Source: Patiria pectinifera (Eukaryota > Echinodermata > Asteroidea > Valvatida > Asterinidae). Taken from it: a stretch of DNA of 64,000 bases. Below the pieces are notes generated by a model. That model had not been told where the DNA came from and did no database searches. It worked only from the letters and a program-made list of their open reading frames with translations. Position 1 is the first letter of the stretch. The number at the start of each line of letters is the position of its first letter. The stretch lies in contig CM057146.1 of the NCBI GenBank assembly GCA_029964075.1, forward strand, positions 14,031,501-14,095,500, given 5' to 3'. Below are positions 12,735-62,800 of this stretch, piece after piece. The translations under genes were made by a program, and so were the position numbers.

Positions 12735-15700
12735 GTAAGTGCAGTTAGGAATTGTTTCTCATTGGGTCTTATTCTTGAGCAAGTGAGGGCGCAGTATTGT
12801 TCATATCACTCATGTACTTTTCAAGTTATGGACTTTTAAACACAAGCCAAGTTTTATAATTTTGTCCACAGATCACAGTAAGTGATATTTCAGCAAAATG
12901 AAAACAATTCACATTTAAATCAAATCACCTCAGAACACTCTCATAACCGTGATAACTTGCACTTATATCATAACCTTTATTTAAACACCTTCTTGCTTCC
13001 AATGTTAAAAAAAACCCATACTTTATAATGTCAAGATATTATAGCCTCGCTCGCCTTCTACTTGCCTACCCGGAGACTTATGGGATTACTTTGATATCGT
13101 TTTCATGATACGACATAGTTTCATGTTACGGAAACATCATGTACCTTAAATGTGGTCAATGGACAAAGTTTTAAAGCTGTGTTTTTGTTCAAAATTCCAG
13201 GACTAAAAGAAAGCTCATTAATTTGGCTTTCACATCCTAGATCTGGAAAGCGCAAGCCGAAATGCTTTTTAAAATAGGGGGCGCCATTTGGGCTTTCTTT
13301 GTTTTACTCACCCTGTAGACATGAAACCCATATTATTTGATGTAAGAATGAAACACTAGCTTTTATTCAGTTAAAGGTAATGGACAGAATTCACCAAAAA
13401 AACACTTTACTAAAAATCTGAAGCAGGTTATTAAAAAAGAATATCCTGTCGAAATTTTAGATCAGTAAAATTTATACTATTTGAGAAAATTCAAAGGAAG
13501 AAAACTGAAAAAGCAAGATTTCTGTTGAAATTTTCAAAGTGGTTTTGACTTCCATCTTCCAATGTTATGATCCCAGATTGTCATGTGAGAAGAATAATTT
13601 CATTCACGGATATTTGAAAAATGACTTTTTTCTCTCTTAAAAAAAACACAATGTTTTAGACATTGTCAAGAAATGATGTTAATTCCTCTTTTCTTGAAAA
13701 TGACAGCATACTAAATAACGATTTCACAGAATGCTTGACCCTGTTATTTACTTACAATCAAGTAGGATATTTTGTAATACTAATGGTTTAATTGGCAGTT
13801 TCGTTTTGAACGTTTGCAAATGGTGTCCATTACCAATAAGGAGGATACTGAAATACCATCCAAGGTAAAAATGGAAACCATAACAATGTCCATACAAACG
13901 AGAATTTATGTGGTTCTTCTTTTTGAACATCCACGATATAGAAACTTTCAGAAATGCAAACAATCTCCTCAGTTCTGAGTAAACTATGTCTTTGAATTCT
14001 CTCTTTTTTCTCTGTAGACATTATTCCAAGGACTTCTTCCCGCACGCCGACACGTACGTTAGGTATCTCAAGGACTATGCCCAGAAACTCAAGCTCAACG
14101 TCAAATACAACACCAACGTGCAAAATATCAGCCGCTCGTCAAGAAATGGGCCCTTCACGTTTCTGGACCAACACAGCTACAGTTACAAATGCAGGTAAGA
14201 AATACTGCACAAGAAATACTTTGTGTACAGATATGGGCATGGTTGATATATGTGTAATAATATTTTATTAAAAATTTGGGGGGAAAAACACTGTTTTTCA
14301 CAAATTTGAAATGGTGCATTGTGGTATGCCAATATACATGTACCGGTACTTACCGGTATTATTCTAATATACTATTATGCAAGTATACATAAAGTAAAAC
14401 AGTCATAGGTGACAGGCCAAAATTTCTTAGGATGCAAAGTAAAAAACAATCAAAATGAGAGAGGGGCAATTCGACAGAATTTAATGTCTTTAAACCTTGA
14501 CAATTTGTGTTAAATCTTTTTTATAGCTTGTTTTCTGTATTTTATTAATATAATTGTTTATTTCCAACAATGTTCAACAGTTCTTTGTTACTTTTAACTG
14601 AAAAAAAAATTAATCAGTTCACCAAAAAGAAAAATATTTTTTTCTGAATACATCCGACACCATGGTGTTTCGAGCCACTTTGTACTATAGCAAAAAGAAG
14701 TTGGATTAATAATTTCTTGTTAAAATCATTGTAAAAAGTAATTGATACATGTACGTTTTATCATAATTAAAATCCACTTTATGATTTAGCTTTTATTATG
14801 CGCACTGTCGAATTGTCCAAAATGTACATCCGATACCGTGCAACTGCCAAGAGACATGATTGAGGTTTCACTGTGGGCAGAATCAGGCAGTGTCGTGGTG
14901 CACTGTTAACCCTTTAATCTTTCTCCATTGTACAACCACACGCACAAACCGCATATAATCCTGCTTTCAACCACGATGCAATTTCATTAACTAATTCATC
15001 AAAATAAGGGGAACAAATCTGGAAATATCTGAAATTCTACCCCTTTTTCTTTATTGTTATTGATTTTGTTAATATATATTTCATGAGGACTTTTCAGCTG
15101 TGCATCTCGGACGCTCCATGCAATTTGTCACAGTTGAGATCCGAGTTGCGCTTTTGAGTTTCCGTCAGAACACAAAACGGGGTCAAATATGCACAAAAGT
15201 GCCCTGTGCACTTGTAACGTCAGCGTGTTTTAGAAACAGGACTTTAGATTATGACATTTTTCGGGGGCACGAGGCCCGAAGGAAGTCGTGTTCAGCGGGA
15301 ACGTGTAATGAAAAATCAATTTCCGGTCGGGTGGACAACATAGTGAGACAGCATGTAGCAAATGAAGCATCAAACGGCGACGGATTTAAGAAGCAGGCAC
15401 TTTCTTGTTGAATTTGTTCCACCGCTTTAACATCATCTCGTTGTCTGTGCATTCTGAAAAAGCATCTTGCTGTCCGTACATGTTTATTTAATGTATGTGG
15501 GTCATTCCATAAATTTGGGGTCCAAAGTGTCAGGGGCGGATCTAGCTTTTAGGAAACGGAGGATTGATATGAAGGTGGAGGGGGGAGGGGTGAGTGAAGC
15601 ACGCCTTGCAGGGGCGTCCTGGTGTCCAGGGGCTTGCACCCGGAAGCATTTTGAAATCTACGAAGCTTTCTCCTACATTGTAAGGCAATTTGAGAATAAA

Positions 15701-30700: not shown

Positions 30701-33700
30701 AGTCCCCTTACTATCTTTCAACCAAGTATGTTTGTCAACAATAATTACGTCAGTTACTTTTTGGATAGCTGCAAATGATGGACTCGGGCTTTAAGACCTA
30801 ATTTTGTGGAATTCTCAGGATTTCACCAGCTTTTTCCAAATTGGAGAGAACAGTACATGTACATGTAGAGGCACCATCCATATGTGTGCACTTTTTTACT
30901 GCGAAATGGCAGAGTCCACTAACATACATACATGTACATCCCTGATTGATAATCAAGTCTTAGATTTCATTTTCTTTTTTTTCTGTTTTTTTAGCTCGTG
31001 CCTTATTCCGAATTCTCGAAGTTCGTTACCAGTCCGTGCCCTGGCCCTCGGTCCGATTACCCATCACAGAACTCATCAACCACATCATCAAGAGAATCAA
31101 CGAAGCCTCAGGAACCTATCAGATGTTTAGCGTCCTCGCGGATGTCATTATCTTACATGGGTGAGACTAAACAGGATACAAATAAATTGAATCAAACCAA
31201 ATTTAAACAGATCCCTCAAGAAGGTACAGAACTGAAAACAGCTCATGCATAGTGCCTTTCAGTGATTGGATGAACTCAGACAAATCACACGCTCAGTTAC
31301 CAGATTTGCATAAATTTCAGATACATAAATGGGGAACAACATATAAGTTTCGGTGTTACACACTACACCTTGCTTAATATTTATTTTCCATTCAGATGAG
31401 CTGTTTCTTTTTAACACGCAACACTTCAGTAGCAATCTTCAGAGATCCTGCAAGCTTACATGAAATGTCAATTTCATGATTTCATTTGTGATGTGTTCTG
31501 TCAAAAGCAGACTCCTCTGGGTAGCTGGCAGGTTGATTTTTTCCCAGCTATTTAAAAGAAAGAGATTGTCCCTTAAAGGGAATATACATCATTGGCTTTT
31601 GCTGTCATTTTCAGAAATGAACTATTTGAGGGGTTAGTATAATAGATCAAATATTGTTACACTGACAGCGTTTGAAGTTTTGTGTTCGAAAATGCTGGAA
31701 AAACCAAGAAAAACAAAACTGTTCAAGTAGTCTGGTTCCCTGACTCCACTAAATATAAAATGGATCAATTTACAGATGCCCGAAAATTGTAAGGTAAGGG
31801 TACCAGTCTATAGCTGGCCTGCACCCGTTCATGAACGTGTTACCAATAGCAAACAAAATTTGGACTGAATTAATGGTAAATTTGGAGCAGTAGTTGAAAA
31901 ATAGTTAGGTTTTTCCAACGGTGGTCGGCCGACCACCGCTGGAAATTTTTACAAAAATACCATTTTCTTGAAAATGACTTCACACCAGGTGCCATAATTT
32001 TACAGGATGCTTTAGACTGTCATTTATCAACATTCTATTAAGGTATTTCGTAAAAACTTGGTAGTTTTATTTTTCGATGTTTGCAAATGTTGTATATTCC
32101 CTTTAATGACTACAATAACTTTTAAAAAAAAGTTGCCTTGACAACTTTATGGCCATTTGAAGTTTGTGATTTTACAAAAGTGGAAACAGAGAAATTGCCT
32201 ATTGAAGTTTTTCCTTTGCATTTCTGGAACTGTACACCTTAAAAATCGTACCAAAATTTCACCTTTAGAAGTGAAATTATGGTCTGAAACTTCTACAGTA
32301 TATCAAAAGACTTTGATTATGTCACATTTGAAGAAAAAAAATGAAAATATAATAAAAATGACCCTTACATCATGTTTTGGTTGTATCTCCGATTCAAACT
32401 CCGCAAAGAAGCGTCTGGTTTGGACAGTGTACTTCACATTTCATTCAGTTTTCACAAATTGTTTAGTTCTTTATATTTTGATGTTTATTTTTATTTCGTT
32501 GACTGCAGTGATGGTATGGAGTGTGAGTACATCGAGGAGTTTCCAGTCAAGTTACTGCCCGAGTTGTCCTCCATTACTGGCAGGAATGCCAGCCGAGTCA
32601 TTGTGGTCTCCATGGAGTACGGCAAAGATTTCTCAGGTAGGAGACCGGGATTCGAACCGGGTACCTCTGAATTGCAGTCTCAGTAGTGACATGTCGGAAA
32701 AGTGACATGCCTACAGGACATTGCCCAACAAATCTCAGTATTTTGGAGCTGCCCCCCTCATGTTTATTTTTCTCATTGTCATTGCTGTGTTATTTTTTAT
32801 TGTGCAAAGCCAATTTATGCTACATTTTGTATTATCTTGTGAAGGTTTTGATAGCAATTTTACAAAAAAAAATTGATGCTCTAGACCACGACAAGGCAAG
32901 CATCCCACGTGCTACCAATAAACGGAAAACCGAAATTCAAATTTAAAACAAAAATCACTAGGTTGGGTACCATGTTGCCTGTATTGGAAAAATCACTTTT
33001 GCATTTTTATACTAATGTCTTGCGGATGTTTTGTCAGCAAATTAACAAAAACAATTGATGCTCTAGACTACAACAAGCCAAGCACCTCACGTGCTACCAG
33101 TAAACAGAAAACACAAAATACAAACTTAAAACAAAAACCAACAGACGGATACCATGATGCCTGTATTGGCAAATCACTTTGGCAACATCAAAGCATTTTT
33201 TTCTTCTTTTCAATTACATTTACATTAATCCATTTCTTTGTCAATGATTGGCAAAGCCCAATATTGAATTTACTTCTTCCTGATGTAGAACTTCCTTCCT
33301 TCCTTCCTTCCTTCGTTCCTTCCTTACAAGTGCTGCCTTCATATGGTTGAAGATAAACGCACTGCCAGAAACACCGGGACGAACCCCTTCTCTCAGCGAT
33401 AAGTGTTACTGGGTTCTTTTCCGCGCATTACACACGGGACCTACGGCTTTACGTCCCATTCGAAGGACGAAGCAATTATGGTTAAGTGTCTTGCTTAAGG
33501 ACACAAGTGTCAAGACCGGGACTCAAACCCACACTCTGCTGATCAGAAACACCAGCAGAGCTTGAGTCCGGTGCTCTTAACCGTTCAGCCATGACACTCC
33601 ACACCGTAGTGTACAAGACAGTGAAGTCCCTTAGTGTAGTCTTCCGCTTCCCAAACCTCTTCTTTTCTGATTTTGTCTCCAGGACCTGGCAAGGATATTT

Positions 33701-36700
33701 TTGGGCCGATGCGAGCCACAGCCCTGCCAGTGTTAGCCCATCTCTCCAACTTCCTTCACCCAGTGCTCTATTACTACAGTGCCTTACCTACAGGTAAATC
33801 TACCATTACTATTTATCCTAAAAGTAACCTACCAAATTATCAGTGCTCTATTACTACAGTGCCTTACCTACAGGTAAATCTACCATTACTATTTATCCTA
33901 AAAGTAACCTACCAAATTATCAGTGCTCTATTACTACAGTGCCTTACCTACAGGTAAATCTACCATTACTATTTATCCTAAAAGTAACCTACCGAATTAT
34001 CAGTGCTCTGTTACTACAGTGCCTTACCTACAGGTAGATCTACCATTACCATTTATCCTAAAAGTAACCTACCGAATTATCAGTGCTCTATTACTACAGT
34101 GCCTTACCTACAGGTAAATCTACCATTACTATTTATCCTAAAAGTAACCTACCGAATTATCAGTGCTCTATTACTACAATGCCTTACCTACAGGTAAATC
34201 TACCATTTGCATTTATCCTAAAAGTAACCTACCGAATTATCAGTGCTCTATTACTACAGTGCCTTACCTACAGGTAGATCTACCATTACCATTTATCCTA
34301 AAAGTAACCTACTGAATTATCAGTGCTCTGTTACTACAGTGCCTTACCTACAGGTAAATCTACCATTTGCATTTATCCTAAAAGTAACCTACCGAATTAT
34401 CAGTGCTCTGTTACCACAGTGCCTTACCTACAGGTAAATCTACCATTTGCATTTATTCCAAAAGTAACCTACGGAATTATCAGCGCTCTATTACTACAGT
34501 GCCTTACCTACAGGTAAATCTACCATTACTATTTATCCTAAAAGTAACCTACCGAATTATCAGTGCTCTATTACTACAGTGCCTTACCTACAGGTAAATC
34601 TACCATTTGCATTCAGTAGTAGTAGTAGAAACATTTATTTCAATGTTGCCATTTCCACACAATAACATGTTACAATGCCGTGTAAACATATTATACAGAG
34701 CGACAGACAAGTGGACATGACGGAGAAAAACAGAGACAGTGACAAAGGACAAAATGGACAACAGTGAGACACACAAAGACACAACCTAGAAAAACACAAA
34801 CTGGTATGAGACGAGGGCATACATCTAGATTCATAAATTATAACTAGTTATTCGAATAAACGTAGAAAAACACAAACTGGTATGAGACGAGAGCATGCAT
34901 CTAGATTCATAAATTATAACTAGTTGTTCGAATAAGAATTGATTTTATAAGAATTGAATTTATCCTAAAATTAACCTACCGAATTATCATCAAAATGCTT
35001 TCTTGGATTAGAGATTGTACTACCTTGCTCTATGGTTAAACTATTCCGTCAGGCTTGTTGCTATTTAGAAAAAAGATCAAGAATGTAGGCAATTCCAACG
35101 ATCAGTTTACTAAATTTTAGAATCAAGAATGCTATTGACAAACTTGTGTTTTGTGATCAAAAGGTTGTGCATGGTTTTTCACAGTTTTTTTTTCTTTCAA
35201 AAATTGTAATATCTACTGGTTTTTGAGTGGTGTTATTATTGGAAAGAACAAAATAAATGAAAAATGATCTTATAAGTATGCCTTTTGGAGTAATTGCAGA
35301 ATACCCCGCCACTCGGAAATACCCCCCCCTAAATCAATGGCTGGTTGGTTGGAATGCAAAAAAAAAACAATTCAAGTTGCCATTGCCAGCGGATACTAGT
35401 GAGTTGGGGGTCCATTACCTGAAAAAATTGTAAGTCCCAACCAACCACCCTGTTGGGGCTACGGAGCTCTGGGAGGGGGAGTCCTCTTGATATGCTTTGA
35501 GCAAGCAAAACAAAAAGGAATGGCTGAAAAAAAAAAAAAAAAAAAACCAAACTACCCTGTTGTGGCTCGGACAGTGGGAGTGCAGTGCAATGGAATCGCA
35601 GCGTCATCGCATAGTACAAGTAGCGCTGAGTTGTTTGTGAGTTAAATGACCTCATAGAACCATACGAGAGGTGGATAGATCGAGTGACGGGGTATTCTGC
35701 AATTGTGCCTGCCTTTAACTGGTGTACATGCAATGGAAGGGTCATCGCAGCTAAACTGTATGGACTTCGTGTTTAAGGTTTTCATGCAAACCATAATCTG
35801 ACAAATCTCATTGACTTTAATACAAGCCATTATTAAAAGAAACAATCACAAATTTCCTTTTTTCTCATCTCTCTCTCTCTCTCTCTCTCTCTGTCGTCAG
35901 CTGAAGATATGTCCGCCCTAGGCCCCAAGGACGTCCTTCCATCCCCAGATCGCCTTCATCACATCGTGGAAGACTTCTTGACGGACTGGACCGCACCAGT
36001 CAGGTCTGTAGTAAAGCCAAGTCAGTAATGGACCCTTCTCGCCCCGTCAATCCAACAGTGCTCATTGACCAATCAGATACGACTAACGGTCAGGTGACCA
36101 CAATGCCTCTGTGCGATGGTACCTAGGTTAGAACCCTGACAGGGGAGCATGGTGTTTGTGTTCTTGGGCAAGACACTTTACTATAATTGCCTTTCTCCAC
36201 CTAAAGTATAATTGGGTACCTGTAAGGCTGGAGACCAGATTGTGCCGGTCTGCTTCTGAAAACTGGTCTTATGGGCCATATGCAGGAGTCGGCCAAATTG
36301 AATTGAAAGTTAGGTAAAATCTTAATTTTTGGAACTTGCAAAGATAAATAAAAGCAACTTAATTACTAATTGATGCCAGTCTGCTTCAAAGAATAATTTC
36401 GAATTTGTTACTAAACATTCCCTAATGTGTAAAGCCAGATTTTAAAAAAATGTCAGTAAAATAAGGCTGCATTATGCCTGCATAAATAGTCTGGCTCCAT
36501 CCCATTCAACAGTTAACAATTAATGAAATATAAGGCCCATGGCCTGATGAGCATTAAACATTCCTGTCCATAAAGTTGAGTTTATCTATTTTGAAGTGCT
36601 CAGTAAACCCTTCTAAAAGGCGCCCCCAAAAAACAGTAAAAAAATAATGTTCTGACAAACATGTTGTTGGATATGCGAGTGGAGATAATAAGGGTTTATC

Positions 36701-43849: not shown

Positions 43850-44010
43850 TTTGTACATGAGCACGTCTGGACCTTAGCTAGTAAAAACTTCAGGTCATTC
43901 GGACTTCAACTCAGACTTGAGCTCGTTTGTACTTGAGCACGCCTAGACTTTAGCTAGTAAACTCGAGGTCATTCGGACTCATCCGGACCTGAGGTCTTTT
44001 GGAGTTCGTT
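43850..44010. repeat. Minisatellite of about 74 bp, unit 1 copy
   Basis: Units of the form 'gacttgagctcgtttgtacttgagcacg', then 'agactttagctagtaaactcgaggtcattcg' (split here for length). About two copies. Confidence 0.7.
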
Positions 44011-47000
44011 TGTCGGGACAACTGAGATTTTGAGGAAGGCTTGGTCATATCATCCCCATTTTGAAAGGTAGGCCTTCGTTTTAACATTTCATATTTAGTC
44101 ATAGCTAAGTGCAGGTTATCACGTTGACAATAACGAATATTAAACTTTTATGCAGCTTAACAACGAAAAACTGCAACCCTCATAAAAACTGGATTTTATT
44201 TAGATTTTTGTCTTGCCCCCTAACAAATCCTCCCTGTCGGTATACTGGCATTATCGAGTCCGATGGGGAACGGGGCCATTCTACCCTGCAAGAACTGCAT
44301 TATTGTCGGGCACCAAATAATTTGACCTCTGTAAAGTGATTGTTTGAAAACTAAACGTGGTCAGCGGTCTCATTCGATGTTTCATTCGATGTCACGTCGG
44401 TTGGATAGGCCCACCCCGAAAGTTTGACCCTTGGTATATATTCACGCCTAAAAGATGAACCGACCAACACTCAGAACAAAGCTAATGTGAAGCATTTCTT
44501 GATGTGATACAATATTTGTTCATATTTCAACGCAAATTGTTGTCTTTGATTCCTAAACCAAATTCCTCAACCCTCATTCACAATTGATATAATATACATA
44601 ATACTCCAACGACTGCGTGCCGGTGTTTCTTGATCTAGCGATCTTGGGGTAGCTTCCTGGTCCCGTGACTAGTAGTGCTTGTGACGGTCCGTATGTCCGC
44701 AAATGCGGGGCAATTTCTTAAAAGTTTAACAAATGGTTTTTAAATTTAAAAAGTCAATCTCTATTTTATGTGCCACTAAAGGGCGCCCTTTCCGGTGATA
44801 TCGCCATCATTTTTTTCTTGGTGTTTGGCATTTCTCACTAAACACTCAATTTCACAAATTACTTGTCTGTACTAAAATGCTTCCGTTTTCGAGTTAAATT
44901 CAATTTTCATTGCACTTCCAATAACACCGGAAGTGAAGGTCAAGCGGTTTTGTGACCGGGAAGAAAATGTTGCTGAAGGCACCGTCTACCACCTCGCGAC
45001 AAACGATAACGACACTCAGATTCAGTTTGTTAGAGAGAGTTGAAAGTATTTTGTCTAAGTCTGCCCTTAAATCGCTTGTAATTTAATATCTGATGACGTC
45101 ATGATGACGTCACAAAATCCATTACATCTTCGAACCCATGTCCAAGTTCTACCAGGTTTTATTATGACCACGTCAACCGTTCGGAAGAAATCTTGGTTGT
45201 TATGACTGAGGCTCATTTCTGTATTTTTAATTCAACTTACTTTGACTTTTCGGTCATACCAAAAACTGTTTAGGAGGAGAAAACCTGCCGAATATAGACT
45301 TTTTACTATAAATTCATAATAATGCAAGCATGTGCACAAATGGGCCTGGCGACAAAAAGTGAAAGTAGCCCACTGTAATGTACAGGGGTCAAATTGTTGT
45401 CATCTGCTCTCAATTTCTCCAGGATTTCTCACTTTTTTAATTCAGAAAAGGCCCTAAAATCGTCATTGGCATACCTTTCTGGTCTCAGTTCTGGTCTCAT
45501 TTTTTTGAGGGGGGGGGGGGGGCCACGAACAATCATCTTTAAAAATTGCTTGTGTCCCGTGCGCACAAGGGCGACTATCAGCAGGGTTCCTTTCCGCAAC
45601 GGTGCAAAAAATAAACATGCTTGGAAGATTCCCGGTTCAACTACAAAACACTAGCGATCATCTTTTCAAATATCGGGTTTTGAAATACCATCGAGAGCCA
45701 AAGGTGGTGATTGACGAGAATGTTGCAACTTTTTGCCGCTGACCGATATAGTGCAACGTGATTTTCGCGTGGCAGGCGCCCGGGCAAGTACACCCGATCC
45801 CTGGTCAACGTGACCGTCAGTGCACGGTGAAATCGATTTGTGCCGGCGTATATATCCCTTTCGCCTTGTGCCCCCAAAAACCACTAAAGCCAGAAAATAA
45901 TGCATATGACGATTTAGGGATTTTTCATGCAACAAGTACAAATTTCCGTGAAATTTGCGTTCATGAAACCAAAAAACTATTTGGATTTTATATTCCGGCA
46001 AAATATAATCAAATTGCTTTCTTTCTTTACATACAAAATGTACAAATTTCCACTGTAGTTTTTCGTAAATAAAACAAATAATGCAATAAACGTACAATAG
46101 CTCAAGCATTAAAATTCACTAAAGAAGCAGTCAGGCTGAGCCCTCTCCTTTGGCTTCTCTATATCGGTAAATTCACATCAATTATTTTTCAAAATCATCG
46201 AGGCTGGTCTCTGCCCTCTCCTCGGAATCTCATCTCAGAATCTGCTCCATTCCAAACTCGTCTTGCTTATAAACCCCGGGAGAAATATTTAAGCGATGCC
46301 ACATGGTCCAAGAATTTGGTAGGCATTCAAAAACAAACTAAGTATTCGACAATCAAAATGATGCAAAGTTCTGGCCAAAGTGGGCTTTTTGGGGTTAAAA
46401 AAAAATCACAACTTAAAAAAATGCTTTCTTCCCGAGCGACTATGAGGGCGAAAGGAATCAGCAGGGCTCCTTTCCGCACGTGTGAAAATTAGTAACTGCA
46501 CTTCGCGGTACCATCCACCAGACTACGGGACAAATCGCTACTGAATCGCGTCGGGCTGAACGGCGGGCTGAATCATGGACTGCGCCGACATAAACGATGT
46601 CGATGTCACCGTGCACGAACCTTTACGTTGACCGGGCACTGGGCGTACAGGCCCGGCGGGCGCCACACGAAAAATCACGCTGCGCTATATCGGTCAGTGG
46701 CAAAAAGCAGCAACATTCTCGATCCCGATATTTACAATTATCTCTCTTTCTTATTATATAAATAAATGTAGTGGTCGGCCCTGCTGTCTTAATCAGAGGG
46801 GGGAGACTTGTCCACCAGTTAAGGAGGATGGGAGGCAATCACTAAGCATGGACAATCATCAGAGACACTTCTCATCGGTTTCTGTCAGTAGTTGATTTGG
46901 TTGATTTATTGATGAGTGATGAAGCTCAGTTGAAATACAATATTTCAATAGAAATATAAAAAAGAAGACGTCTTCAAATCCTTGCTTAAATGACTTCAAA

Positions 47001-50419: not shown

Positions 50420-51350
50420 AAATCAAATCACATTTATTTCCTCTTCATGACAGAAATGAAAAAGTAATATAAGTACTTAAAGATATAAAGGCCACTAGAG
50501 GTGGCAAAACCTTAAAAGCATAGCTTGTATCAGGCATGCCATTACACAAAACAGACGAATAATAACAGGGAAAAAACGAGAGAAAAAAAAACAATTAAAA
50601 ACAAAGACCAATTACACACATGTATAATTCTAAGCAGTTAGCAAAGTTGTGAAAAAGTTATAAAAATAATATTAATAATTAATAATGGGCTACGAGTAGG
50701 ATCGTCGTGGATACAGAGTCCAATTATGGCAGAGGCATATAACATATAAAATATATTACATGACATAAGATACAATTTAAGTTTGCGTTTGAAAATATTA
50801 TAAGACCTTAAACATCTGAGAGACAATGGTACATTGTTCCATATTTTAGGTCCGGTGTATTTAATGTTGTATTGGAAGGCAGATGTTCTATGTTGCGGTA
50901 TGTGGAAATGTAAGTTAGTAGACACACGAGTATTATAGTTATGCAAATTGCAGTTTAGTACAAACATGTTTGAATAGGAAATGGGCAGTAAATTGTTTTT
51001 AAACTTGTACATAAATAGAGCTTGTTGGTATTTATTTAGGTTTGTTATGCTTAAATATTTTAGTTCACGCAAGAGAGGTTGACTATGGGCCCTATATGGT
51101 GAATTTGTAATAATTCGAACAACTCTTTTCTGCAATTTTATTAGTTTATCCAAATTCGTACGGAATGTATTCCCCCAAACAATGTTACAGTAAGAAAAAT
51201 AAGGAAGTATTAATGAACTATAGAGAGTATTTAACACCTCAGAGGGAACAGTATGTTTGTTGTATTGCGTAATAATAAAGTGTTGCAAAATAACGCAATA
51301 CATTAATTGCGAAACCACTAAATATTGCGAAACAACTCAGTTTTGCGAAT
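50420..51350 (-). pseudogene. LINE fragment (CR1/jockey-like), RT C-terminus and 3' end
   Basis: A 226-codon minus-strand frame (51,318-50,638) encodes the C-terminal part of a non-LTR reverse transcriptase: LYSSLILPYFSYCNIVWGN, KLIKLQKRVVRIITNSPYRAH, LLRELKYLSI and GPKIWNNVPLSLR. These are typical of the region after the RT domain in CR1/jockey-group elements. The frame is open and little decayed, but the catalytic RT and endonuclease parts are missing, so it is a 5'-truncated insertion. The 3' end has AATAAA and a short repeated tail (gatttgatttga) near 50,420. Confidence 0.85.
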
Positions 51351-59896: not shown

Positions 59897-62800
59897 AGGT
59901 TCATGTTTTTGACCAAGCTTGTCTTTGAATTCAGCTCATTCAGATTTGAGCTCGATTGTACCTGATTGAGCACGCCTAGACTTTAGCTAGTAAACTCGAG
60001 GTCATTCGGACTTCAACTCGGACTTGAGCTCGTCTGTACCTGAGCACGCCTTGACTTTAGCTAGTAAACTCGAGGTCATTCGAGCTCGTCTGTACCTGAG
60101 CACGCCTTGACTTTAGCTCGTTAAACTCGAGGTCATTCGGACTCATCCGGACCTGAGGTCTTTTGGAGTTCGTTTGTCGGGACAACTGAGATTTTGAGGA
60201 AGGCTTGGTCATATCATCCCCATTTTGAAAGGTAGGCCTTCGTTTTAACATTTCATATTTAGTCATAGCTAAGTGCAGGTTATCACGTTGACAATAACGA
60301 ATATTTAACTTTTATGCAGCATAACAACGAAAAACTGCAACCCTCATAAAAACTGGATATTATTTAGATTTTTGTCTAGCCCCCAAACAAATCCTCCCTG
60401 TCGGTATACTGGCATTATCGAGTCCGATGGGGAACGGGGCCATTCTACCCTGCAAGAACTGAATTATTGTCGGGCACCAAATAATTTGACCCTTGTAAAG
60501 TGATTGTTAGAAAACTAAACGTGGTCAGCGGTCTCAATCGATGTTTCATTCGATGTCACATCGGTTGGATAGGCCCAGCCCGAAAGTTTGACCTTGGTAT
60601 ATATTGACGCCTAATAGATGAACCGACCAGCCCTCAGAACAAAGCTAATGTGAAGCATTTCTTGATGTGATACAATATTTGTTCATATTGCAACGCAAAT
60701 TTTTGTCTTTGTTTCCTCAACCAAATTCCTCAACCCTCATTCACAATTGATATAATATACATAATACTCCAACGACTGCGTGCCGGTGTTTCTTGATCTA
60801 GCGATCTTGGGGTACCTTCCTGGTCCCGTGACTAGTAGTGCTTGTGACGGTCCGTTGGTTTGCAAATGAGGGGCAATTTCTTAAAAGTTTAACAAATGGT
60901 TTTTTAATTTGAAAAGTCAATCTCAATTTGATGTGCCACTAAAGGGCGCCCTTTCCGGTGATATCGCCATCATTTTTTTCTTGGTGTTTGGCATTTCCCA
61001 CTAAACACTGAATTTCACAAATGACTTGTCTGTATTAAAATGCTTCAATTTTTGAGTTAAATTCAATTTTCATTGCACTTCCAATAACACCGGAAGTGAA
61101 GGTCAAGCGGTTTTGTGCCCGGGAAGAAAATTTTGCTGAAGGCACCGTCTACCACCTCGCGACAAACGATAACGACACTCAGATTCAGTTTGTGAGAGAG
61201 AGTTAAAAGTATTTTGTCTAAGTATGCGCTTAAATCCCTTGTAATTTGATATCTGATGACGTCATAATGACGTCACTAAATCCATTACATCTTCGAACCC
61301 ATGTCCAAGTTCTGCCAGGTTTTATTATGACCACGTCAACCGTTCGGAAGAAATCTTGGTTGTTTTGACTGAAGCTCATTTCTGTATTTTTAATTCAACT
61401 TACTTTGACTTTTCGGTCATACCAAAAACTGTTTAGGAGGAGAAAACCTGCCGAATATAGACTTTTTACTGATACATTCATAATTATGCACGCATGCGCA
61501 TAAATGGGCCTGGCGACAAAAAGTGAAAGTAGCCCTCTGTAATGTACAGGGGTCAAATTGTTGTCATCTGCTCTCAATTTCTCCAGGATTTGTCATTTTT
61601 TGAATTAGAAAAGGCCCTAAAATCGTCATAGGCATAACTTTCTGGTCTCAGATCTGGTCTCATTGGGGTTTTTTTTGGGGGGGGGGGGGCCACGAACAAT
61701 CATCTTTAAAAATTGCTTGTGTCCCGTGCGCACAAGGGCGACTATCAGCAGGGTTCCTTTCCGCACCGGTGCGAAAAATATACATGCTTGGAAGATTCCC
61801 GGTTCAACTACAAAACACTAGCGATCATCTTTTCAAATGTCAGGTTTTGAAATACCATCGAGAGCCAAAGGTAGTGATTGACGAGAATGTTGCAACTTTT
61901 TGCCGCTGACCGATATAGTGCAGCGTGATTTTCGCGTGGCAGGCGCCCGGGCAAGTACACCCGATCCCTGGTCAACGTGACCGTCAGTGCACGGTGAAAT
62001 CGATTTGTGCCGGCGTATCCTATTCGCCTCGTGCGCACGAGACGAAAGCAATTTTTAAAGTTTTTATTTTGTGCCCCCAAAAACCACTAAAGCCAGAAAA
62101 TAATGCATATGACGAATTTAGGGATTTTTCATGCAACAAGTACAAATTTCCGTGAAATTTGCGTTCATGAAACCAAAAAACTATTTGGATTTTATATTCC
62201 AGCAAAATATAATCAAATTGCTTTCTTTCTTTACATACAAAATGTACAAATTTCCACTGTAGCTTTTCGTAAATGCAATAAATGTACAATAGCTCAAGCA
62301 TTAAAATTCACTAAAGTAGCAGTCTGGCTGAGTCCTCTCCTTTGGCTTCTCTATATCGGTAACTTCACACCAACTATTTCTCAAAATCATCGAGGCTGGT
62401 CTCTGCCCTCTCCTCGGAATCTCATCTCAAAATCTGCTCCATTCCAAACTCGTCTTGCTTATAAACCCCAGTAGAAATATTAAAGCGATGTCACATGGTC
62501 CAAAAATTCGGTATGCATTCAAAAACAAACTAAGTATTCGACAATCAAAATGATGCAAAGTATAAACACGCTACTCAATAAACCTTTTCACTGTGAAATA
62601 ATAATTTATGCCCTAAAAATGGTTTTGTGGCAAGAAGCGAAATTGGTCCATTACAATGTACAGCGGTACAAACAAACAGAAAAGGCCCTGAAATCGTCAT
62701 GGGCATTACTTTCTGGCCAAAGTGGACTTTTTGGGGGTCAAAAAAATCACAACTTAAAACAATGCTTTCTTCTCGAGCGACTATGAGGGCGAAGGGAATC

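What the first reader, a model, noticed from the sequence alone, without database searches (positions are those of the whole stretch)
33761..34980. A splice junction of FOXRED2 amplified eleven times in tandem
The 80-bp repeat contains the last 33 nt of coding exon 8, the splice donor and 47 nt of intron. It is not a minisatellite that merely lies near an exon: the unit boundary cuts inside the exon. All eleven copies keep a GT donor in the same context (acag|GTAAAT or acag|GTAGAT). The splicing machinery must choose the first donor; donors 2 and 3 give frame shifts with early stops. Keeping eleven competing donors without obvious decay suggests either very recent amplification or active homogenisation.
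Basis: seen in the sequence. Interest (0 to 1): 0.88.

Follow-up and report, generated by a model that had tools for sequence, protein, structure and literature searches.

The report
Splice-donor minisatellite in FOXRED2-like gene
An 80-base stretch that spans the end of a gene's coding exon and the start of its intron is repeated about eleven times, so the gene carries eleven near-identical 'cut here' signals; the repeat is really in the assembly, but it looks like an ordinary minisatellite that the cell can probably splice around, and similar cases are already known.

Summary
The array is in the assembly: ten full 80-bp units plus an eleventh split by a young SINE-like insert (33761-34613, resuming 34958-34987). 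Each unit holds the last 33 nt of exon 8 of a FOXRED2-like gene, the donor (CAG|GTAAAT in 9 of 11, CAG|GTAGAT in 2) and 47 nt of intron. Most of the intronic part is the 5' end of a dispersed MITE; the unit junction shows a 2-bp (CA) microhomology. Likeliest origin: a microhomology-joined tandem duplication across exon edge and MITE, then unequal exchange. The ten full units differ by 5.1% on average, so 'very recent' is not needed, and an untouched AGGT is expected by chance (P about 0.5). All ten later donors give premature stops if upstream units are retained. But every unit carries AG|GT, so splicing by whole units would rebuild the same junction; 'must choose the first donor' is not established. 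Consensus, U1 pairing and accessibility do not favour donor 1. Known relatives: the IFI6 minisatellite with several splice donors and the UBC tandem dual-specific sites. RNA, other individuals and related species could not be examined.

The parts
33683..33793 (+). Coding exon 8 of the FOXRED2-like gene (phase-1 end; ...[17 protein letters not shown])
   Evidence: acceptor tttgtctccag|GA, donor CTACAG|GTAAAT, open frame continuing into exon 9
33761..34613 (+). 80-bp tandem array: units 1-10 (33761-34560) and the first 53 nt of unit 11 (34561-34613)
   Evidence: TRF, unit listing, pieces of unit 11
33794..33799 (+). Donor of unit 1 (GTAAAT), the donor that gives the open frame; further donors begin at 33874, 33954, 34034, 34114, 34194, 34274, 34354, 34434, 34514, 34594
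   Evidence: 11 of 11 AG|GT; 9 GTAAAT, 2 GTAGAT
34614..34957 (.). Young SINE-like insert (my label; AGT-repeat start, internal 2 x 76 bp) inside unit 11, flanked by a possible 3-bp ATT duplication
   Evidence: positions 89-330 of the query up to 99% identical to dispersed copies in the same genome; in those copies extra sequence lies between this part and the first 89 bases; 76-bp repeat; flanks
34958..34987 (+). Rest of unit 11 (unit positions 51-80)
33804..33840 (+). MITE-derived part of unit 1 (unit positions 44-80; same part in the other units); the MITE copy continues 34958-35285 with its 3' terminal inverted repeat
   Evidence: dispersed copies; alignment of 30 rows and 397-bp consensus with 24-bp terminal inverted repeats; window 34954-35285 has 278 of 314 aligned positions identical to it, plus 79 gap columns
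34988..34989 (+). CA shared by the two original breakpoints (exon 33761-33762 and intron 34988-34989): 2-bp microhomology at the unit junction
   Evidence: direct reading...TTCACC|CAGTGC...GAATTAT|CAGTGC...GAATTAT|CATCAAAA
35901..36003 (+). Coding exon 9 ([33 protein letters not shown])
   Evidence: acceptor after a (TC)n tract, frame continuous with donor 1

Best explanation
A minisatellite that was born across a splice donor and is tolerated. A MITE lay about 10 nt inside intron 8 (shown). A tandem duplication joined by 2-bp microhomology (CA) copied the last 33 nt of exon 8 plus the first 47 nt of the intron (junction shown, mechanism inferred). Unequal exchange or conversion then raised the number to eleven units and mixed them (inferred from interspersed variants). 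A young SINE-like element landed in the last unit (shown; its order relative to the last amplifications is open). The normal mRNA is most likely made by joining donor 1 to exon 9, so units 2-11 leave with the intron (inferred). Occasional use of a later donor gives a premature stop and probably decay of that transcript (stops shown, decay inferred). No function of the array itself is needed.
For: Array anatomy and unit-by-unit reading. Full-length unit matches in the genome lie only here. MITE identity of most of the intronic part and its continuation beyond the array. MITE letters TTTGC kept in units 6, 8, 9 and 11, changed in units 1-5, 7 and 10. Donor 1 gives an open frame through exon 9 into exon 10, while 10 of 10 later donors give earlier stops. 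No special protection of AGGT (P 0.51) or of the exonic part (4 of 33 against 8 of 47 variable sites, Fisher P 0.75). Other minisatellites exist: 6 arrays (period 25 or more, 3.5 copies or more) in 261,798 bases from 50 sources, two of them in the window and one being this array, so one straddling an exon edge somewhere is not remarkable.
Against: No transcript was seen, so use of donor 1 is inferred. Consensus and U1 pairing do not favour donor 1, and predicted accessibility is highest at unit 11 in both settings, though low everywhere. From recalled splicing literature, when several strong donors are occupied the one nearest the acceptor can win, which would favour unit 11. The sample for the array rate is small, partly centred on repeats, contains one place twice (L012 and L048) and includes the window.
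Confidence: 0.55

Rival explanations
1. A ladder of dual-specific AG|GT sites. Any donor i can join the AG of any later unit j, which rebuilds the same CTACAG|GTAAAT junction; the intron is removed in whole-unit steps and the mRNA does not depend on copy number or donor choice (recursive, zero-length-exon splicing).
For: AG|GT in 11 of 11 units at exact 80-nt spacing. The AG|GT acceptor tract (scored in units 2 and 3) has 0.69 pyrimidines and a longest run of 4, inside the range of this gene's eight scored acceptors (0.62-1.00, runs 4-18; exon 6 not scored); 13% of all AGs in the window reach 0.69. UBC is a documented tandem array of such sites, and introns that are whole multiples of a repeat unit are 8.4-fold enriched in human (PMC10809524).
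Against: Two further AGs lie 14 and 30 nt upstream of each AG|GT, whereas the eight scored acceptors of the gene have no AG for at least 37 nt. No RNA evidence.
Confidence: 0.25
2. A copy-number-dependent brake on the gene: competing donors divert part of the transcripts into premature-stop isoforms, so array length tunes expression.
For: 10 of 10 later donors give premature stops if upstream units are kept; donors score nearly alike.
Against: No sign of preservation of donors beyond chance; no expression data.
Confidence: 0.08
3. Assembly artefact or wrong copy number.
For: Only one assembly is held and no reads could be examined; units 1 and 2 are identical, and so are units 3 and 5.
Against: Eight distinct sequences among ten full units, with a different element inserted in the last unit; the contig is 24.2 Mb long.
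Confidence: 0.07
4. A series of ten 30-nt in-frame microexons ([10 protein letters not shown]) made by the junction-created acceptor TTATCAG|TG and the donor, giving a protein with a variable repeat.
For: 30 nt, phase 1 at both ends, open frame with 1 or 10 inserts.
Against: The acceptor tract has 0.50 pyrimidines, which 59% of all AGs in the window reach; the intron would be only 50 nt; the four variable sites of the exonic part all change the amino acid when read in the exon-8 frame (sites; codon reading mine; weak, since most random changes do).
Confidence: 0.03

Closest known systems
[quoted passage not shown] the paper itself, PMC306954, is not held; seen as a reference-list entry in PMC3618361, PMC4526556 and PMC2572611 and as one sentence in PMC4526556)
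   Same: Tandem repeat units supply several donors; PMC4526556 says that downstream repeat units are used as donors in transcripts.
   Different: There the unit is 12 nt and in frame (recalled); here it is 80 nt and 10 of 10 later donors lead to stops. Use of later donors is untested here.
UBC tandem array of dual-specific splice sites (PMC10809524; abstract, 12 of 30 passages found, and section 7 read)
   Same: Regularly spaced AGGT sites in a tandem repeat, so splicing by whole units is possible.
   Different: UBC units are 228-nt coding units and keep the frame whether removed or retained; here units are part intron and all must go.
Fission yeast genes with multiple tandem copies of a 24-bp AGGT segment and introns spanning them (SPOG_01682, SOCG_00815; Zhu and Niu 2013, as told in the introduction of PMC4974935)
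   Same: Several tandem AGGT copies, with an intron that covers whole copies.
   Different: There the repeated segment is exonic and 24 bp; here it is 33 nt exon plus 47 nt intron, and intron use within the array is untested.
[quoted passage not shown] potato RdRp case PMC4974935, abstract and introduction read)
   Same: Tandem duplication of an AGGT-containing segment; in the potato case the segment also crosses an exon edge.
   Different: Here the segment crosses the donor of an existing intron and is amplified eleven-fold; no new separate intron is shown.
Recursive splice sites / ratchet points (PMC8605326, search listing and start of abstract only)
   Same: Acceptor and donor directly joined (AG|GT).
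   Different: Tandem, repeat-derived, at the start of a roughly 2.1-kb intron; use untested.

Membership tests
Minisatellite | tandem units of tens of bp, many copies | tested here: met
   80 bp, 10.6 copies, 95% matches
Minisatellite with multiple splice donors (IFI6 type) | each unit carries a donor-like site, the first at the exon end | tested here: met
   11 of 11 units, 8 of 9 consensus positions in nine and 7 of 9 in two
Minisatellite with multiple splice donors (IFI6 type) | later donors used in transcripts | not testable with these tools
   no RNA data
Tandem dual-specific splice sites (UBC type) | AGGT at every unit, constant spacing | tested here: met
   11 of 11, 80-nt spacing
Tandem dual-specific splice sites (UBC type) | same site used both as donor and as acceptor | not testable with these tools
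   no RNA data; acceptor tract 0.69 pyrimidines, but other AGs 14 and 30 nt upstream
Tandem dual-specific splice sites (UBC type) | frame kept whether a unit is removed or retained (true of UBC itself) | tested here: not met
   80 is not a multiple of 3; 10 of 10 retained forms meet premature stops
[quoted passage not shown]
   AGGT present, but the segment is 33 nt exon plus 47 nt intron
[quoted passage not shown]
   no RNA data
Recursive splice site | good pyrimidine tract before AG|GT | tested here: inconclusive
   0.69 pyrimidines, longest run 4; within this gene's range but near its low end, with nearby upstream AGs
FOXRED2 | flavoprotein of the Pyr_redox_3 / FMO type | tested here: met
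   Pyr_redox_3 E 3.1e-11 in exon 1 (43.5 bits, cut-off 30) and 7.4e-7 in exon 3 (29.1 bits, below the cut-off); no family in the other 4 of 6 translations; exon 1 also matches FAD-binding proteins of known structure, best E 4.9e-5
FOXRED2 | orthology to FOXRED2 rather than another flavoprotein | not tested
   no animal protein collection is at hand; the name rests on recalled similarity

The most novel reading that the evidence does not exclude
The array works as a staircase of zero-length exons: FOXRED2 intron 8 is removed in random 80-nt whole-unit steps, so the mRNA is indifferent to copy number, and a splice-site minisatellite is invisible to selection because AG|GT repeats erase themselves from the transcript.
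Probability: 0.2. Interest if true: 0.68.

Novelty: new variant of a known kind. Interest (0 to 1): 0.42.

Why it matters
If real in the animal, this is a natural experiment on how a spliceosome picks among eleven near-identical donors at regular spacing in a native gene; single-nucleotide differences between units can mark some of the choices. It also tests the idea (PMC10809524) that AGGT-bearing repeats are tolerated because splicing can remove them by whole units. As genome biology it is otherwise a minisatellite in an unlucky place.

Tried and rejected
Donor derived from the MITE's terminal inverted repeat: the outer 17 nt of the repeat against the 16 nt at the donor give an alignment score reached by 8% of 20,000 random window 16-mers and by 45% of 49 other AGGTA sites in the window, so not supported; only unit positions 44-80 are clearly MITE.

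Selection keeping the donors: not supported (one test each for AGGT, for the 9-nt donor and for exonic against intronic sites).

Accessibility as a way to mark out donor 1: each donor sits in the same hairpin TTACC-TACA-GGTAA. P(9-mer unpaired) is 0.001-0.007 over units 1-11 with the 80/40 setting and 0.000-0.003 with 150/100; unit 11, not unit 1, is highest in both. Six other donors of the gene give 0.000-0.113 with 80/40; four of them (exons 2, 3, 4, 7) exceed every unit, exon 1 equals unit 11, and exon 9 is lower (exons 5 and 6 not scored). So the array donors are less accessible than most of the gene's scored donors by this prediction, which may mean something or nothing.

Similarity against distance between units: mean differences 3.8, 3.5, 3.6, 4.2, 4.2, 5.3, 5.0, 5.5 and 2.0 for separations 1-9: a slight rise up to 8, then a fall in the single pair at 9; not tested.

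Rfam scan of the window at gathering scores: no match. Papers: no hit for FOXRED2 plus starfish (the animal's identity was my guess); searches on splice-donor minisatellites, intron gain, recursive and dual-specific sites gave the precedents named and, in their listings, no report of this array. That is a statement about those searches only. FOXRED2/ERFAD papers were seen as a listing only.

Rows dropped: the MITE alignment kept 30 of the 32 loci examined (L013 and L049 failed the length rule); L012 and L048 are the same place, so the 30 rows hold a duplicate. One search scored 40 of 2154 first-look candidates, 40 of 168. One search compared the ten full units only; unit 11 is not in the divergence figures. 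The U1 snRNA of this genome could not be fetched, so a U1 5' end typed from recall was used.

Full report
What is there. TRF reports 33761-34607, period 80, 10.6 copies, 95% matches. Reading the sequence gives ten full units and an eleventh that runs 53 nt to 34613, is interrupted by a 344-bp insert, and resumes with unit positions 51-80 at 34958-34987. Exon 8 is 33683-33793 with a good acceptor and donor, and its frame continues into exon 9 at 35901-36003. The unit is therefore 33 nt of exon and 47 nt of intron. The window lies on a 24.2-Mb contig of a 613.5-Mb genome. In that genome full-length unit matches lie only in this array (11 of 14 matches; the other 3 cover positions 51-80), and the exon-8/9 peptide matches only this gene (2 of 2 matches) (the tool scores only the best candidates).

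The gene. Exon 1, near 12.4 kb, matches Pyr_redox_3 (E 3.1e-11), and exon 3 does so just below the cut-off (29.1 against 30 bits); the other four translations scanned, exon 8 included, match no Pfam family. Exon 1 also matches FAD-binding proteins of known structure (best E 4.9e-5). Candidate exons were read near 14018, 21590, 26636, 28447, 31.1 kb, 32509, 33683, 35901 and 37124. The joins 8-9-10 were made by script, the others judged by eye; the end of exon 5, the edges of exon 6 and the end of exon 10 were not fixed, and no cDNA was seen. The name FOXRED2 rests on similarity recalled from the human protein; no database here names it.

Where most of the intronic part comes from. Unit positions 51-80 match three dispersed loci exactly, and the sequence downstream of the array belongs to the same family, with 2154 first-look candidates of which 40 were scored. 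Thirty aligned rows (29 or fewer distinct places) give a 397-bp consensus with 24-bp terminal inverted repeats, a MITE. The copy in intron 8 is recognisable from unit position 44 on and, beyond the array, to 35285 (278 of 314 aligned positions identical, with 79 gap columns besides). Its outer 17 nt at the donor side are not recognisable, and the idea that the donor itself came from the MITE is not supported.

How it probably arose. The exon breakpoint (CACC|CAGTG) and the intron breakpoint (TTAT|CATCA) share CA, and the unit junction reads TTAT|CAGTG, the mark of a microhomology-joined tandem duplication (inference). The MITE gives the older letters: TTTGC at positions 46-50 is kept in units 6, 8, 9 and 11, whereas units 1-3, 5 and 10 read TTACT and units 4 and 7 TTACC. 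These types are interspersed, and site 10 is incompatible with sites 37 and 48, so units have been exchanged or multiplied in blocks, or site 10 mutated twice. Mean divergence among the ten full units is 5.1% (exonic part 3.2%, intronic part 6.3%). The array looks younger than the MITE copy (about 11% substitutions from its consensus) but need not be very recent; exchange between units would also lower the figure. The insert in unit 11 is up to 99% identical to other copies of its family over query positions 89-330.

Are the donors protected? There is no sign of it. Twelve of 80 positions vary; the chance that none falls in AGGT is 0.51, and that at most one falls in the 9-nt donor is 0.60. 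Variable sites are not significantly rarer in the exonic part (4 of 33 against 8 of 47, P 0.75). All four exonic variable sites change the amino acid if read in the exon-8 frame (my reading of the sites).

What splicing can do. Donor 1 joined to exon 9 gives an open frame; donors 2 to 11, with upstream units retained, all give earlier stops (10 of 10). The donors score nearly alike: 8 of 9 consensus positions and -8.8 kcal/mol with U1 for nine, 7 of 9 and -8.5 for two (U1 5' end recalled). All sit in the same predicted hairpin, with unit 11 slightly the most accessible. So sequence alone does not single out donor 1. Because AG directly precedes GT in each unit, joining any donor to the AG of a later unit rebuilds the same junction; whole-unit removal would leave the mRNA unchanged. 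The AG|GT acceptor has 0.69 pyrimidines and a longest run of 4, within the range of this gene's eight scored acceptors (0.62-1.00, runs 4-18; exon 6 not scored), but other AGs lie 14 and 30 nt upstream, unlike those acceptors, which have none for at least 37 nt. A 30-nt in-frame microexon is possible on paper, but its acceptor is weak (0.50 pyrimidines). I consider donor 1 to exon 9 the likeliest main route (0.55) and the whole-unit ladder the main rival (0.25).

What is known. Papers cite an interferon-induced gene (IFI6) whose minisatellite provides multiple splice donors (Turri 1995; seen as reference-list entries and one sentence). UBC has a tandem array of AGGT sites that act as both donor and acceptor, shown by RT-PCR (PMC10809524). 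Tandem duplication of AGGT segments is a standing model of intron gain, with fission yeast genes carrying several 24-bp copies and a potato case crossing an exon edge (PMC4974935). The present array works like these on paper; membership in the dual-specific and intron-gain groups needs RNA data, and one feature of each was tested and not met (frame kept when retained, as in UBC; purely exonic segment). What differs is the out-of-frame unit across an existing donor, much of it MITE, in eleven copies.

How unusual. A sample of 261,798 bases (50 sources, including the window and loci centred on repeats, one place twice) holds 6 arrays with period 25 or more and 3.5 copies or more, this one included. 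At such a rate a genome of this size holds thousands (my extrapolation), so one lying across an exon edge is not surprising. Interest 0.42: a neat natural test of donor choice, with known precedents.

Noticed in passing
43835-63913: Large repeated blocks (up to about 2.3 kb, 84-96% identical) recur through the last 20 kb of the window, e.g. 43919-45851 with 60082-62018 (95.7%).
   Followed up: partly
50641-51336, minus strand: A long open frame that looks like a remnant of the C-terminal part of a LINE-type reverse transcriptase (resemblance recalled).
   Followed up: no
33781-33799 and the same place in each unit: The exon end CTTACCT resembles the 5' end of U1 snRNA (recalled) and pairs with the donor as a hairpin TTACC-TACA-GGTAA, so each unit carries a donor and a possible donor mask.
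   Followed up: partly
34614-34957: A SINE-like family (my label) with an AGT-repeat end and internal 76-bp repeats; 168 first-look candidates in the genome, 40 scored; at C18:21074352-21075054 several matches follow each other at about 78-bp steps.
   Followed up: partly
33804-35285: MITE family of about 397 bp whose consensus has 24-bp terminal inverted repeats; 2154 first-look candidates in the genome, 40 scored.
   Followed up: partly
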